A DNA stretch of 38,185 bases. Source: Dehalococcoidia bacterium (GTDB lineage Bacteria > Chloroflexota > Dehalococcoidia > UBA2979). Both the position numbers and the translations under genes were made by a program. The notes beneath the pieces were generated by a model that searched no databases, was not told the DNA's origin, and saw only the letters and a program-made list of their open reading frames with translations. Positions 10,855 to 22,567 of the stretch are shown here, in pieces. Position 1 is the first letter of the stretch; the number at the start of each line of letters is the position of its first letter. The stretch lies in contig WHSU01000032.1 of the NCBI GenBank assembly GCA_009379925.1, forward strand, positions 1 to 38,185. The letters run 5' to 3'.

Positions 10855-10951
10855 CGAGACGCACACGTCTCGTAGCCTCGGTCGCGACAGCTACCGAGGC
10901 GTACCGAGTCCGCCATCGACTGACTGTCCCGCCCGGGACACTGCCAGTGTC
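10855..10951 (-). terminator. Cluster of four inverted repeats between hemL and dnaN
   Basis: Four perfect stems follow one another: CGAGACG-CACA-CGTCTCG (10855-10872), an 8-bp stem GCCTCGGT/ACCGAGGC with a 10-nt loop (10875-10900), TGTCCCG-CC-CGGGACA (10925-10940) and GACACTG-C-CAGTGTC (10937-10951). The last two overlap, so they are mutually exclusive folds, and the last includes the hemL stop. No T-tract follows on the minus strand. The likely roles are transcription termination or mRNA 3'-end protection for the heme operon, insulating dnaN. Confidence 0.5.
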
Positions 10952-12245
10952 AGCCCGCCGAGGCGCGAAGGGCGCGCGCGGCGACCTCGACCGTCCGGTC
11001 GACGTGCGCCTCGTCGTGGGCCAGGGACACGAACCACGCCTCGAACTGCGACGGCGGCAGGTGCACACCCCCATCGAGCATGGCGGCGTGGAAGCGCGCG
11101 AAACGCGACGTGTCCGCGCGCTTCGCCTGCGCGTAATCCGTGGGCGCGGTGTCGAGGAAGAACGGAGTGACCGTGGAACCGACCCGGCTCACCGCGAGCG
11201 GGACACCGGCTTCGCGCGCAGCCTCCACGAGCCCCCGCTCGAGGCGCGAGCCCAGCTCTTCGAGTCGGCCGTAGGCACCCTCGTGGTCGCGGATGGCATC
11301 GAGAGAGGCGATGCCGGAGGCCATCGCCAGCGGGTTCCCGGAGAGGGTGCCCGCCTGGTAGACGGGGCCGAGCGGCGCCATCTGCTCCATCAATTCGCGC
11401 CGCCCGCCGTAAGCGCCGACCGGTAGCCCGCCGCCGATGATCTTGCCGAGCGCTGTGAGGTCCGGCATGATCCCGCACCGCTCCTGCGCCCCGCCCCAGG
11501 CAGCCCGGAAGCCCGTGATCACCTCATCGAAGAGGAGCAGTGCGTTGTGGTCGTCGCAGAGCGAGCGTAGACCCTCGAGGAACCCCGGCGCCGGCGGGAC
11601 GACACCCATGTTCCCGGCGATCGGCTCGACGATCACCGTCGCGATCGCCTGCGGGTGCGCCTCGAACGCCCCGCGCACGGCGTCGAGGTCGTTGTACGGC
11701 ACGACCAGCGTCTGCGCGGCATAGGCGGCGGGGACTCCGGGTGAATCGGGCAGCCCAAGGGTGGCCGCGCCGGATCCGGCGGACGCGAGCAACCCGTCCG
11801 CGTGGCCGTGGTAGCAGCCCTCGAACTTCAGGACGAGGTCGCGGCCGGTGGCCGCGCGCGCCAGGCGGATGGCGCTCATCGTCGCCTCCGTGCCGGAGCT
11901 GACGAAGCGCACCATCTCGATCGATGGCACCGCATCGACCACCCGCTGCGCCAGCTCGGCCTCCGCCGCCACCGGCGCGCCAAACGAGGTGCCGCGTCCG
12001 GCGGCGTCGCGGATGGCCTCGATGACCGCCGGGTGCGCGTGGCCGAGCAGCAACGGACCGTACGAGCAGACGTAGTCGATGTATTCGTTGCCATCGACAT
12101 CGGTGACGGTGGCGCCCTGCCCGCTCGCGAGGACGACGGGTTCGCCGCCGACGGCACGATAGGCGCGGACTGGCGAGTCCACTCCGCCGGGGAGCAGGCG
12201 TGACGCGCGCTCCATCACGTCGTGCGAACGCGCGCGGTCGGTCAT
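10950..12245 (-). CDS. hemL: Glutamate-1-semialdehyde 2,1-aminomutase
   Basis: This is a PLP enzyme of 431 residues that converts glutamate-1-semialdehyde to 5-aminolevulinate, the second step of the C5 route that starts with HemA. The family pattern LLPGGVDSPVRAY is at the N-terminus. The PLP lysine is Lys268 in TALGKIIGGGLPVGAYGG, and the aspartate-containing LLLFDEVITGFR is just before it. Its length is typical. The ATG overlaps the stop of the HAD gene by 4 nt (ATGA). It is the last gene of the heme operon, followed by hairpins. Confidence 0.96.
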   Translation of the reverse strand: MTDRARSHDVMERASRLLPGGVDSPVRAYRAVGGEPVVLASGQGATVTDVDGNEYIDYVCSYGPLLLGHAHPAVIEAIRDAAGRGTSFGAPVAAEAELAQRVVDAVPSIEMVRFVSSGTEATMSAIRLARAATGRDLVLKFEGCYHGHADGLLASAGSGAATLGLPDSPGVPAAYAAQTLVVPYNDLDAVRGAFEAHPQAIATVIVEPIAGNMGVVPPAPGFLEGLRSLCDDHNALLLFDEVITGFRAAWGGAQERCGIMPDLTALGKIIGGGLPVGAYGGRRELMEQMAPLGPVYQAGTLSGNPLAMASGIASLDAIRDHEGAYGRLEELGSRLERGLVEAAREAGVPLAVSRVGSTVTPFFLDTAPTDYAQAKRADTSRFARFHAAMLDGGVHLPPSQFEAWFVSLAHDEAHVDRTVEVAARALRASAG

Positions 12246-20478: not shown

Positions 20479-21557
20479 CGCAGACCCTGCTCCTTCGCGG
20501 TGGCCTCGCACAACTCCTCCCAGCGGTCGTAATCCGGGATGAAGTAGGGCAACCGGATCTTCTTGAACTCCGTGCTCGAGTAGAGGACGCGGTACTCCTC
20601 GACGCCGGTGTCGCGCGAGATGGCCTGCGCCGTCTCCTCCACGCCCGACACCTTCGCGTGGTGCAGCATCGAGAAGACGTTGTACGGCCAGTCCGGGTAC
20701 GTCGGCCGCTCGTAGCAGTGCGACACGCCGCGATACCCCGCGACGTACTGCCCGAACTCCACGATGCGCTCGTGCGGCACGTTCCACACCGCCATGCCGT
20801 TGGCGCGGAAGCCGGCCGTGCGGTGGTTGAGGATGCCCGCGAAGCGCCGGAGGTGCCCTGTCCGCGACAGGTGCCGGCCGTGCTCGAACACACGCTGGAT
20901 ATCCCAGCCCAGCGTCTCCGCGACGCCCACGTAAGGCTCCTCCACGGTCGGCAGGTCGCCCTGCGTCGCGCGGATGTAGGCTATGTCCTCGGCCGTGACC
21001 TCGTAGCCCTTCGCACCGTCCCGGCGCTGCTGCGTGTACTCCGGCTCACCCCGCGCATCGAGGGCGCGCCCGCCGGACATGTCGAGGTTCACGGCGATCT
21101 TGAAGAGGTTCAGCGTGGGCATCGGCCGCGTCGACTCGGCGCCCGACAGCTCGTGGAGCCTCTGAATGACCGCGTCGAGGTCGTGACCGGGGGGCATCGC
21201 GACGGTGAACCACATGTTGAACTCGTGGTTGCGGCGGTAGTTGTGGGAGACGCCCGGATGCGCGTTCACCACCTCGGCAGCGGCGCGCAAGCGGTCGCCG
21301 TCGACCTTCATGGCCACCAGCGCCGAGGAGTACCCGAGCGCCTTGGTGTCATAGATCGCGCAGACCTGGCGCACGACACGCGCGTCCCGCGCCTCCTGGA
21401 AACGGGCGATCGCCTCCGCCTCATCGATGCCTGCGCGCTCGCCGAGGACACGGTACGGCCGCGGGTCCAGGGGGAAGTCCTCTTGCACCAGATCCAGCAA
21501 CTTGCGGCTGACCTCGTCGAACTCCGGCCTGACGGTCCGTGCTTCGGTCGTCGTCAT
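20475..21557 (-). CDS. ahbAB: Fused siroheme decarboxylase (AhbA-AhbB-like, Lrp/AsnC fold)
   Basis: This is a 360-residue protein with two AsnC/Lrp-like halves. The first has a HTH region and GVSHNYRRNHEFNMW (102-116); the second has GVSHCYERPTYPDWPYN (277-293), which is a signature of AhbB/NirD-type siroheme decarboxylases. Usually AhbA and AhbB are separate subunits of about 150-170 residues, so this is a fusion. The enzyme removes two acetate carboxylates of siroheme to give 12,18-didecarboxysiroheme. Heme d1 synthesis (Nir) uses the same reaction, but no other nir gene is seen here. It overlaps hemQ and the aldo/keto reductase gene by 4 nt each. The fold and family are clear; the use for heme b is inferred from hemQ. 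Confidence 0.85.
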   Translation of the reverse strand: MTTTEARTVRPEFDEVSRKLLDLVQEDFPLDPRPYRVLGERAGIDEAEAIARFQEARDARVVRQVCAIYDTKALGYSSALVAMKVDGDRLRAAAEVVNAHPGVSHNYRRNHEFNMWFTVAMPPGHDLDAVIQRLHELSGAESTRPMPTLNLFKIAVNLDMSGGRALDARGEPEYTQQRRDGAKGYEVTAEDIAYIRATQGDLPTVEEPYVGVAETLGWDIQRVFEHGRHLSRTGHLRRFAGILNHRTAGFRANGMAVWNVPHERIVEFGQYVAGYRGVSHCYERPTYPDWPYNVFSMLHHAKVSGVEETAQAISRDTGVEEYRVLYSSTEFKKIRLPYFIPDYDRWEELCEATAKEQGLR

Positions 21558-22567
21558 CGGCTCGCTACCCCCGCCTCTTGCTCCCGCGGGAGTCCGTAGT
21601 TGGCCTCGTACAGGTCCTTGATGCGCGCTCGTTGCGCGTCCGTGATGTCCGGGACGTCCGAGGCGGCGGAGAACTCATCGATCTGGTCGGCGTCGTAGAT
21701 GTTCGGCAGCGCGCTCACCACTTCGGGCTCGCGCAGCACGTAGCGCAGCGCCGCCTGGCCGAGGGTGCTCCGGTTCTCCTCGGTGAGGAACCCCAGCTGG
21801 CGGACCTTCTTGACGCCATTCACCAGCCAGGCCCGTGGGCGGTGCCGCCGGTGGTCGCCCTCCGGGAACTCGGTCTCCTCCGTGTAGTGCCCCTCGAGCA
21901 TGCCCGAAGAGTGCGGGACGCGGACGAGCAACGACTTGCCGGTCGCGCGCGCCGTCTCAATCAGCTCGCGGCCGGGGTCCAGCTCCAGCGCGTTGTAGAT
22001 CATGTGTACGTTCTCGACCGGGCACTGCTCGAGGGCGTACTTGCCCTCCTCCAGCCACCCGATGGCCGGACCGAGCGCCACGCCGACCGAGCGCACCCTG
22101 CCGGCCTGCCGCGCCTTGTCTACGAACGTCCACACGTCGTCGTTGAGCAGGTGCTCCATGCGCACGTTGTGCATCTGGTATACATCGATGCGGTCGGTGC
22201 CGAGGCGGCGCAGCGAACCCTCGAGCGCTCGCTCGAGGAACGCGGGCTCGAAGCAATGGGCCGCCTCGGTGTGGCCCTCGCGGCGCTTGCCCAGGCTCGA
22301 CTCCCAGTCGTAGCCGAACTTCGTCCCGATCACGATGTCGTCACGGTCGGCGCCGGGGAACGCCTGGCGCATGATCGTCTCGCCGCGGCCGTTGCCGTAC
22401 GTGTCGGCGGTATCGAAGAAGGTGACGCCTCGGTCGTAGGCGCGACGCAGCAGGTTGACCGCCTGCTCGTCTGAGTACGCGCCCCACCACCCGGCGGAAA
22501 CGGTCCACACTCCAAAGCCCAACTCGGAAACCGTGACGTCCGTCCCCGGGATGCGGTTGTAGCGCAA
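21554..22567 (-). CDS. Aldo/keto reductase
   Basis: This is a 337-residue NADPH-dependent (alpha/beta)8-barrel reductase. The catalytic tetrad is visible as FFDTADTYGNG (Asp, Tyr), GTKFGYD (Lys) and VYQMHNV (His). The frame is open to 22699, but conserved sequence begins with RYNRIPGTDVTVSELGFG. I chose TTG 22567 because GAGGGGG lies about 8-14 nt upstream. It is the first gene of a three-gene unit and overlaps ahbAB by 4 nt. A role in tetrapyrrole metabolism is suggested only by this coupling; the substrate is unknown. Confidence 0.85.
   Translation of the reverse strand: MRYNRIPGTDVTVSELGFGVWTVSAGWWGAYSDEQAVNLLRRAYDRGVTFFDTADTYGNGRGETIMRQAFPGADRDDIVIGTKFGYDWESSLGKRREGHTEAAHCFEPAFLERALEGSLRRLGTDRIDVYQMHNVRMEHLLNDDVWTFVDKARQAGRVRSVGVALGPAIGWLEEGKYALEQCPVENVHMIYNALELDPGRELIETARATGKSLLVRVPHSSGMLEGHYTEETEFPEGDHRRHRPRAWLVNGVKKVRQLGFLTEENRSTLGQAALRYVLREPEVVSALPNIYDADQIDEFSAASDVPDITDAQRARIKDLYEANYGLPREQEAGVASR

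What the first reader, a model, noticed from the sequence alone, without database searches (positions are those of the whole stretch)
10950..22567. Possible hybrid siroheme-to-heme pathway with HemQ as last step
Seen: hemA, hemL, hemB, hemC, cobA-hemD and a precorrin-2 dehydrogenase encode glutamyl-tRNA to siroheme, next to a fused AhbAB siroheme decarboxylase coupled by a 4-nt overlap to a HemQ-like protein. Known: AhbA/B convert siroheme to didecarboxysiroheme, AhbC makes Fe-coproporphyrin (coproheme) and AhbD makes heme; HemQ also converts coproheme to heme but normally in the coproporphyrin-dependent route. Inferred: HemQ replaces AhbD here, combining the two routes. No hemE, cgdC/hemY or cpfC is in the cluster. 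An AhbC step is still required and no radical-SAM gene is visible.
Basis: partly seen in the sequence, partly recalled or inferred. Interest (0 to 1): 0.75.

Follow-up and report, generated by a model that had tools for sequence, protein, structure and literature searches.

The report
Radical-free route from siroheme to heme
A bacterium's gene cluster likely makes heme by a route that starts at siroheme and ends with HemQ, and an overlooked aldo/keto-reductase-like gene joined to it is predicted to do the middle step that a radical enzyme does elsewhere; relatives of this gene lie near HemQ in other bacteria and in archaea related to ammonia oxidizers, where no enzyme for this step had been found.

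Summary
In detail: genes from glutamyl-tRNA to siroheme lie beside a fused AhbA-AhbB siroheme decarboxylase and a HemQ-like protein, joined by a 4-nt overlap. The assembly (87% complete, Chloroflexota by its relatives) shows no uroporphyrinogen decarboxylase, ferrochelatase, AhbC or AhbD. A siroheme-to-HemQ hybrid is known from haloarchaea, but there it keeps AhbC. New is the operon's third gene, an aldo/keto reductase (AKR) overlapping ahbAB by 4 nt. Its orthologue clade is in 30 of 31 HemQ genomes of the class without ferrochelatase, in 0 of 4 with ferrochelatase, and in 0 of 20 HemQ-less genomes tested, 12 of them with AhbC. Of the 30, 22 lack AhbC; in the other 8, AhbC has a second radical-SAM gene of AhbD-like type nearby. 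The AKR keeps its catalytic tetrad but not the usual nicotinamide contacts. It also lies near HemQ in three Nitrososphaerota without AhbC. I infer that AKR plus HemQ replaces AhbC plus AhbD; nothing has been assayed. Against generality: six Thermoleophilia genomes with AhbAB have neither AKR nor full AhbC, and some AKR genomes do have AhbC.

The parts
21554..22567 (-). aldo/keto reductase-fold protein (AKR), candidate for the AhbC-type acetate-removing step; TTG start at 22567 inferred; overlaps ahbAB by 4 nt (ATGA)
   Evidence: PF00248 163 bits; orthologue clade, one branch with 100/99 support; model pLDDT 89, best structural matches are AKR-fold proteins; overlap read
20475..21557 (-). fused siroheme decarboxylase AhbA-AhbB
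   Evidence: NF040708 257 bits (cut-off 140), NF040707 228 bits (cut-off 125); matches solved NirD-like 4ch7 over residues 19-350, E 1.6e-75
19552..20478 (-). HemQ/ChdC-like coproheme decarboxylase; overlaps ahbAB by 4 nt (ATGA)
   Evidence: PF06778 190 bits; best solved relatives are coproheme decarboxylases; Tyr of the YP motif in 44 of 44 aligned rows
18725..19420 (-). MerR/BldC-type HTH regulator inside the heme cluster
   Evidence: PF12728, PF13411; its cluster occurs in 11 of the 121 sequences compared
17966..18697 (-). precorrin-2 dehydrogenase (CysG N-terminal type)
   Evidence: PF13241 105 bits, PF14824; TIGR01470 149 bits, cut-off 62
16698..17969 (-). hemA, glutamyl-tRNA reductase; start inferred (GTG, 4-nt overlap with the dehydrogenase)
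   Evidence: TIGR01035 380 bits, matched from residue 109 of the longer open frame
15766..16701 (-). hemC, hydroxymethylbilane synthase
   Evidence: TIGR00212 312 bits
14192..15769 (-). cobA-hemD, uroporphyrinogen-III methyltransferase fused to uroporphyrinogen-III synthase; start inferred
   Evidence: TIGR01469 291 bits; HemD models matched over about residues 260-510
13191..14192 (-). hemB, porphobilinogen synthase; start inferred
   Evidence: NF006762 502 bits
12242..13060 (-). HAD-type hydrolase kept in the cluster; role unknown
   Evidence: TIGR01428 112 bits, below cut-off 125; its cluster occurs in 8 of the 121 sequences compared
10950..12245 (-). hemL, glutamate-1-semialdehyde aminomutase
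   Evidence: NF000818 634 bits, TIGR00713 596 bits

Best explanation
The window holds a coupled AKR-AhbAB-HemQ gene trio beside the genes for siroheme, and the trio likely turns siroheme into heme, with the aldo/keto reductase-fold protein predicted to remove the two ring-A/B acetate groups (the step of radical-SAM AhbC elsewhere) and HemQ predicted to finish heme. Shown by sequence: the genes and their overlaps; that AhbC, AhbD, uroporphyrinogen decarboxylase and ferrochelatase are not found in the assembly; the co-occurrence pattern. Inferred: siroheme to 12,18-didecarboxysiroheme by AhbAB (family function); didecarboxysiroheme to coproheme by the AKR (from gene context and co-occurrence only); coproheme to heme by HemQ with peroxide (family function). 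Chemistry, by formula: didecarboxysiroheme C40H44FeN4O12 gives coproheme C36H36FeN4O8 plus two acetic acid, which is redox-neutral overall (formulas recalled), so an enzyme without a radical starter and without net NAD(P)H use is possible. The AKR fits that loosely: it keeps the Asp-Tyr-Lys-His tetrad but not the usual nicotinamide contacts. How it would break the C-C bonds is unknown.
For: Operon: two 4-nt overlaps join the three genes. Own genome: no PF01208, no PF00762; the ten radical-SAM genes found are MiaB, HemW, two of TIGR03960, a TrsS/Tes-like fragment, CUAEP, MoaA, RimO, LipA, RlmN. Class survey of 118 genomes: HemQ in 35, AhbC-type over 480 bits in 38, ferrochelatase over cut-off in 9, HemE over cut-off in 4. 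AKR profile search of 55 of the 118: orthologues score 441-570 bits, the other listed AKRs of these 55 score 258 or lower. AKR in 30 of 31 HemQ genomes without ferrochelatase over cut-off, 0 of 4 with it, 0 of 12 AhbC+/HemQ- (of 30 such), 0 of 8 others (of 53); tally, Fisher p 9.5e-5 for the first contrast (not corrected for relatedness). Thus the AKR follows neither HemQ alone nor AhbAB alone, but their combination. Best natural contrast: G022 and G043, same family, sister HemQs (98/90); G022 has AhbAB and AKR and no HemE or ferrochelatase match, G043 has HemE and ferrochelatase and no AKR orthologue. G045 is one contig, 98% complete: AhbAB-like, AKR, HemQ, cobA-hemD, dehydrogenase, hemL and hemC lie on one strand within 9 kb, and there is no AhbC-type, HemE or ferrochelatase match over threshold. 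In all 8 HemQ genomes with AhbC a second radical-SAM gene is on the same contig within about 4 kb. AKR is next to HemQ, or separated from it by ahbAB only, in 24 of 35. Outside the class AKR orthologues occur in Nitrososphaerota, Poribacteria, Omnitrophota, Elusimicrobiota and others; they lie within about 0.6 kb of HemQ in three Nitrososphaerota, which show no AhbC (G131, G134, G140).
Against: No activity of any kind is known to me for this AKR clade; the assignment rests on context and co-occurrence. AKR and AhbC do not exclude each other: both are in 8 of the 30 class genomes, in 5 of the 17 named AKR genomes, and in 1 of 5 further named genomes whose locus holds an AKR (G147). In two Omnitrophota loci (L048, L087) the AKR sits with AhbAB, no HemQ was seen in the locus, and both genomes have AhbC. 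G095 (91% complete) has HemQ, no ferrochelatase and no AKR; its HemQ and that of G046 are a different subtype. Seven named AhbAB genomes lack both AKR and full AhbC, six of them Thermoleophilia including a complete Conexibacter (G138, which has one 155-bit AhbC-family hit), so another solution must exist there. Only 2 of the 4 ferrochelatase-bearing HemQ genomes have HemE over cut-off (G043, G078), so the other two are not shown to have the whole coproporphyrin route. Weak hits exist: 8 of the 31 have HemE-family matches of 17-41 bits (cut-off 303) and G021 a 20-bit ferrochelatase fragment. The profile A2 was built partly from 15 of the 30 class genomes; the independent part is 15 of 16 against 0 of 4. 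In 6 of 30 the AKR is not next to HemQ. 14 of the 30 have a divergent AhbAB below NCBI's cut-off, and G016 has no clear AhbAB. The second radical-SAM gene beside AhbC matches TIGR04053 best and AhbD second in the three examined. The window's own genome is only 87% complete.
Confidence: 0.55

Rival explanations
1. HemQ itself likely does both late steps: with peroxide it would first strip the ring-A/B acetates from didecarboxysiroheme and then decarboxylate coproheme, and the AKR would only reduce a carbonyl by-product (such as glyoxylate) or another side product.
For: ChdC/HemQ does peroxide-driven oxidative decarboxylation of coproheme (PMC5746218, passages); an oxidative loss of acetate would give a carbonyl that an AKR could reduce (inference); AKR is next to HemQ, or separated by ahbAB only, in 24 of 35 genomes.
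Against: HemQs of ferrochelatase-bearing genomes are interleaved with the others in the tree, G022 and G043 being sisters, and G043, G078 and G033 share the same motif region, so no sign of an added function. The AKR clade has lost Ser-Asn of the nicotinamide site (Ala 48/49, Leu 47/49; other AKRs Ser 18/21, Asn 11/21), odd for a plain reductase.
Confidence: 0.18
2. A standard or divergent AhbC lies in the unassembled 13% of the genome, or another radical-SAM gene has taken its role, so this is the haloarchaeal AhbABC-HemQ hybrid and the AKR is incidental.
For: Completeness 87%; a TrsS/Tes-like radical-SAM fragment of unknown role; haloarchaea have AhbABC plus ChdC (PMC5746218, PMC8305020, passages).
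Against: No AhbC-type match over 480 bits in 22 of the 30 AKR genomes of the class, including G018 (99%), G001 (97%), G011 (98%) and single-contig G045 (98%); wherever AhbC co-occurs with HemQ in the class, a second radical-SAM gene is near it too (8 of 8), so AhbC is not seen serving HemQ alone there.
Confidence: 0.12
3. AhbAB is used for heme d1 or for a siroheme-level product, and HemQ for something other than heme; the cell takes up heme.
For: AhbAB is related to NirD/L/G/H; solved relative 4ch7 is a NirD-like protein; no heme protein was looked for in this genome.
Against: No NirJ-type gene among the ten radical-SAM genes found; full hemA-hemL-hemB-hemC-hemD set in the same cluster; HemW present; HemQ keeps the Tyr, Lys and His of coproheme decarboxylases (roles recalled).
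Confidence: 0.08
4. The AKR is a redox helper (for example keeps the iron or a porphyrinoid reduced for AhbAB or HemQ), and the acetate-removing enzyme is an unlinked, unknown protein.
For: Six genomes have the AKR away from HemQ; Thermoleophilia show that unknown solutions exist; some genomes have both AKR and AhbC.
Against: AKR is absent where HemQ or AhbAB works in another setting (0 of 4 and 0 of 12; 11 of those 12 have AhbAB over cut-off).
Confidence: 0.15

Closest known systems
Siroheme-dependent (Ahb) heme pathway of sulfate reducers and methanogens (AhbABCD)
   Same: precorrin-2, siroheme and AhbAB steps
   Different: no AhbC and no AhbD found; a HemQ and an AKR in their place
Haloarchaeal hybrid: AhbABC plus ChdC/PitA (Haloferax volcanii)
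   Same: siroheme start and a ChdC-type last enzyme, no UroD, CgoX or CpfC in Haloferax (PMC5746218, passages)
   Different: Haloferax keeps AhbC (HVO_1121) and AhbD; here neither is found, and an AKR is coupled to ahbAB; only the chlorite-dismutase domain was matched in this HemQ, no PitA-type fusion
Coproporphyrin-dependent pathway (HemE, CgoX, CpfC, ChdC)
   Same: ChdC/HemQ last step
   Different: no HemE and no ferrochelatase found in the genome
Aldo/keto reductases of family AKR11 (IolS 1pyf, GSP69 1pz1)
   Different: own clade against 21 other AKRs of the surveyed genomes; Ala-Leu for Ser-Asn, Phe for Asn near the cofactor; no known substrate
Archaea noted in 2010 with ahbAB but no ahbC/ahbD (Nitrosopumilus maritimus, Sulfolobus acidocaldarius, Haloquadratum walsbyi; PMC3004389, passages)
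   Same: AhbAB without AhbC and AhbD; three other Nitrososphaerota here carry the AKR near HemQ
   Different: the 2010 paper left open whether they make heme; 'aldo' has 0 occurrences in its text. The three named species themselves were not tested here for the AKR

Membership tests
Siroheme-dependent Ahb pathway | siroheme decarboxylase AhbAB | tested here: met
   both halves over NCBIfam cut-offs
Siroheme-dependent Ahb pathway | AhbC (radical SAM, TIGR04546) | tested here: not met
   best own hits 39 and 28 bits, being MoaA and a TrsS/Tes-like fragment; genome 87% complete
Siroheme-dependent Ahb pathway | AhbD (radical SAM) | tested here: not met
   ten radical-SAM genes found, none AhbD-like; genome 87% complete
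Coproporphyrin-dependent pathway | uroporphyrinogen decarboxylase | tested here: not met
   no PF01208, no TIGR01464
Coproporphyrin-dependent pathway | coproporphyrin ferrochelatase | tested here: not met
   no PF00762
Coproporphyrin-dependent pathway | CgoX/HemY oxidase | not tested
ChdC/HemQ coproheme decarboxylase | PF06778 family with the catalytic Tyr and proximal His | tested here: met
   190 bits; aligned to solved coproheme decarboxylases; Tyr 44/44; residue roles recalled. NCBI's HemQ_actino cut-off is not reached (118 of 235 bits)
ChdC/HemQ coproheme decarboxylase | converts coproheme to heme with peroxide | not testable with these tools
   needs an assay
Haloarchaeal AhbABC-ChdC hybrid | AhbC supplies coproheme to ChdC | tested here: not met
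   no AhbC found
Heme d1 pathway | NirJ radical-SAM enzyme | tested here: not met
   none among the ten
Aldo/keto reductase superfamily | barrel fold and Asp-Tyr-Lys-His tetrad | tested here: met
   Tyr, Lys and His 49/49, Asp 45/49
Aldo/keto reductase superfamily | Ser-Asn contacts of the nicotinamide site | tested here: not met
   Ala-Leu in 48/49 and 47/49 orthologues; contact roles recalled; cofactor binding itself untested

The most novel reading that the evidence does not exclude
A new way to make coproheme: a radical-free, aldo/keto reductase-fold lyase splits two acetates off 12,18-didecarboxysiroheme in air-living bacteria and in Nitrososphaerota, so that AKR plus HemQ is the aerobic counterpart of AhbC plus AhbD.
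Probability: 0.5. Interest if true: 0.88.

Novelty: new variant of a known kind. Interest (0 to 1): 0.75.

Why it matters
In 2010 it was noted that some archaea with siroheme decarboxylase lack both radical-SAM enzymes, among them Nitrosopumilus maritimus, and it was called questionable whether they make heme (PMC3004389, passages); in 2017 a possible unknown coproheme-forming process was raised for Haloferax (PMC5746218, passages). This report names one candidate gene that can be cloned and assayed at once. If right, oxygen-tolerant lineages swapped a pair of radical-SAM enzymes for an AKR-fold enzyme and HemQ, and many genes now called only 'aldo/keto reductase' would get a function (one search lists 2675 relatives of the Nitrosotalea AKR at E up to 1e-60, orthologues and other AKRs not separated).

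Tried and rejected
AhbC in the own genome: two weak hits, MoaA and a TrsS/Tes-like fragment, rejected by best family. Heme d1 reading: no NirJ. Other conserved neighbours as the missing enzyme: the HAD and MerR clusters are in fewer loci (8 and 11) and sit with the early hem genes; DUF1802 lies between AKR and HemQ in Nitrosotalea L070, and its cluster of 3 was seen in L070 and L077 but not marked in the Chloroflexota maps. 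Genes beside AhbAB in Thermoleophilia: one 187-aa family without a Pfam match and some artefact frames, not pursued. Papers: no held paper has 'aldo-keto reductase', siroheme and coproheme together, nor 'ahbC' and 'aldo-keto'; I saw the listings only. The library lacks most subscription papers, and the review PMC5312243 is not held, so any 'not in print' is limited to these searches. Passages (term finds, no whole text) were seen of PMC5746218, PMC7242693, PMC7506110, PMC3942049, PMC8305020, PMC3004389. Not searched for lack of calls: CgoX/HemY, sirohydrochlorin ferrochelatase and heme proteins in the own genome; HemQ, HemE or ferrochelatase in the named genomes; the AKR in 63 of the 118 class genomes. 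Gene maps use a simple open-frame caller and miss or misplace some genes (for example in L202, L203); one search corrects this for the AKR. In one search, 15 more named genomes were searched for AhbC without an AKR search; of the five whose locus holds an AKR (G143, G145, G146, G147, G148) only G147 has AhbC, and of the other ten, G144, G150 (contig edge), G151, G152 and G154 do, while G155 has only 197- and 210-bit pieces and G149, G153, G156 and G157 have none or only an AhbD-like match.

Full report
What is there. On the minus strand, from upstream to downstream, run an aldo/keto reductase (AKR, 21554-22567), fused ahbAB (20475-21557), hemQ (19552-20478), a MerR-type regulator, precorrin-2 dehydrogenase, hemA, hemC, cobA-hemD, hemB, a HAD hydrolase and hemL. 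AKR-ahbAB and ahbAB-hemQ each share an ATGA overlap.

Whole genome. The window is contig 34 of a 3.54-Mb, 71-contig assembly, 87.4% complete. Close relatives of AhbAB that bear names are called Dehalococcoidia or Chloroflexi, so the lineage is Chloroflexota by inference. There is one HemQ-like gene, no URO-D family match, no ferrochelatase match and no AhbC (39 and 28 bits only). Ten radical-SAM genes were found and classified: MiaB, HemW, two of TIGR03960, a TrsS/Tes-like fragment, CUAEP, MoaA, RimO, LipA, RlmN. So the assembly shows no enzyme known to lead from didecarboxysiroheme to coproheme, nor one for the HemE-ferrochelatase route.

Is that a gap in the assembly? I surveyed 118 genomes of the class. 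HemQ: 35. AhbC-type: 38 over 480 bits; the next match is 224 bits. None reaches NCBI's cut-off of 650; the three examined have AhbC as best family, G123 only narrowly before NirJ1 (541 against 537 bits). Ferrochelatase over cut-off: 9. HemE over cut-off: 4. Of the 35 HemQ genomes, 4 have ferrochelatase (G033, G043, G078, G103; HemE over cut-off in G043 and G078 only), 8 have AhbC (G016, G017, G021, G026, G074, G086, G105, G111), and 23 have neither (tally). G018 (99%), G011 (98%), G001 (97%) and the single-contig G045 (98%) are among the 23. Weak, below-cut-off HemE-family hits occur in 8 of the 31 without ferrochelatase, and a 20-bit ferrochelatase fragment in G021. The missing step is therefore systematic.

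What fills it. I fetched up to 20 kb around AhbAB and HemQ in many of these genomes and compared their open frames with those of 80 named loci. Besides the hem genes, one family stood out: the AKR, in 31 loci. It lies beside AhbAB and HemQ, or beside HemQ where AhbAB is elsewhere. It is next to HemQ, or separated from it by ahbAB only, in 24 of 35 genomes (22, the window, and G114). A profile of 21 of these AKRs (A2) was run on 55 of the 118 genomes: all 35 with HemQ, 12 of 30 with AhbC but no HemQ, and 8 of the other 53. Scores fall in two groups: orthologues 441-570 bits, the other listed matches 258 or lower in these 55; among the named genomes the lowest orthologues have 370-404 bits and one second copy in G139 has 314. 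Orthologues: 30 of 31 HemQ genomes without ferrochelatase, 0 of 4 with ferrochelatase, 0 of 12 and 0 of 8 in the rest. Fisher p for the first contrast is 9.5e-5; genomes are related and 15 of the 30 contributed to the profile, so the independent part is 15 of 16 against 0 of 4 (about 0.001, by hand). The one miss is G095, 91% complete.

How to read it. If the AKR were a general partner of HemQ, it should be in the four ferrochelatase genomes. If it were a general partner of AhbAB, it should be in the AhbABC genomes without HemQ (11 of the 12 tested have AhbAB over cut-off). It is in neither; it is there when coproheme for HemQ must come from siroheme. G022 and G043 show this inside one family with sister HemQs. 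Of the 30 AKR genomes, 15 have AhbAB over cut-off, 14 a divergent AhbAB and G016 none clear. In the eight genomes with both AKR-HemQ and AhbC, AhbC has a second radical-SAM gene on the same contig within about 4 kb (best family TIGR04053 with AhbD second in the two of these eight examined, G086 and G111, and in the named genome G123). So AhbC-AhbD and AKR-HemQ look like two exchangeable modules, with some genomes carrying both, much as Haloferax uses AhbD without air and PitA with air (PMC5746218, passages).

Beyond the class. Of 25 named genomes 17 have AKR orthologues. Of the 17, 5 have a full or split AhbC (G123, G124, G125, G133, G139), G142 has only a contig-edge piece, and 11 have none. 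The 11 include three Nitrososphaerota (G131, G134, G140; two are from ammonia-oxidizing genera by recall), where the AKR lies within about 0.6 kb of HemQ, with a DUF1802 gene between them in Nitrosotalea. A fourth, G148 (L077), has an AKR in its locus and no AhbC. A 2010 survey found Nitrosopumilus maritimus and Sulfolobus acidocaldarius to have AhbAB but neither radical-SAM gene and called it questionable whether they make heme (PMC3004389). S. acidocaldarius has a PF06778 protein (control); whether either species has the AKR was not tested. Against generality: 8 of the 25 lack the AKR, and of these only G136 has AhbC; six Thermoleophilia (G126, G130, G132, G135, G138, G141) and one Nitrosotalea assembly (G137) have neither. 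Two Omnitrophota (G139, G147) have AKR beside AhbAB, no HemQ in the locus, and an AhbC.

Verdict. The hybrid route is likely but, in its AhbC form, already known from haloarchaea and not what is here. The better finding is an unassigned AKR as the likely coproheme-forming enzyme of an AhbC-free siroheme-to-HemQ route. This is a prediction from gene context and co-occurrence, testable in a standard E. coli assay.

Noticed in passing
window 5047-9563: Replication-relaxation protein (5047-6930 +) and a serine recombinase with resolvase, recombinase and zinc-ribbon domains (8043-9563 +) next to a dnaN-like gene (9572-10708 -): probably a mobile element.
   Followed up: no
window 25112-28779: Riboflavin genes (ribBA and ribD by Pfam; ribH-like by eye) lie upstream of the heme operon and their clusters recur there in close relatives.
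   Followed up: no
L038, L043, L058, L086 and other Thermoleophilia loci: hemB-ahbAB (often followed by hemL) gene order in Thermoleophilia, yet six genomes have neither AKR orthologue nor full AhbC; their coproheme source is unknown.
   Followed up: partly
L200, L201, L203, L204 and others: A divergent fused AhbAB (86 and 56 bits in L200, below both cut-offs) sits with AKR and HemQ in family f25 and relatives.
   Followed up: partly
G049, G097, G107 (same family as the window): No HemQ, AhbAB, full AhbC, HemE or ferrochelatase match, though 90-92% complete: possibly dependent on heme from others, or using something unknown.
   Followed up: no
L070 13347-13895: A DUF1802 protein (PF08819) lies between AKR and HemQ in Candidatus Nitrosotalea; two other Nitrososphaerota have a gap of similar size there.
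   Followed up: no
L114 (G095), L115 (G046): HemQ of a clearly different subtype with an Arg in place of the usual Lys near the catalytic Tyr.
   Followed up: no
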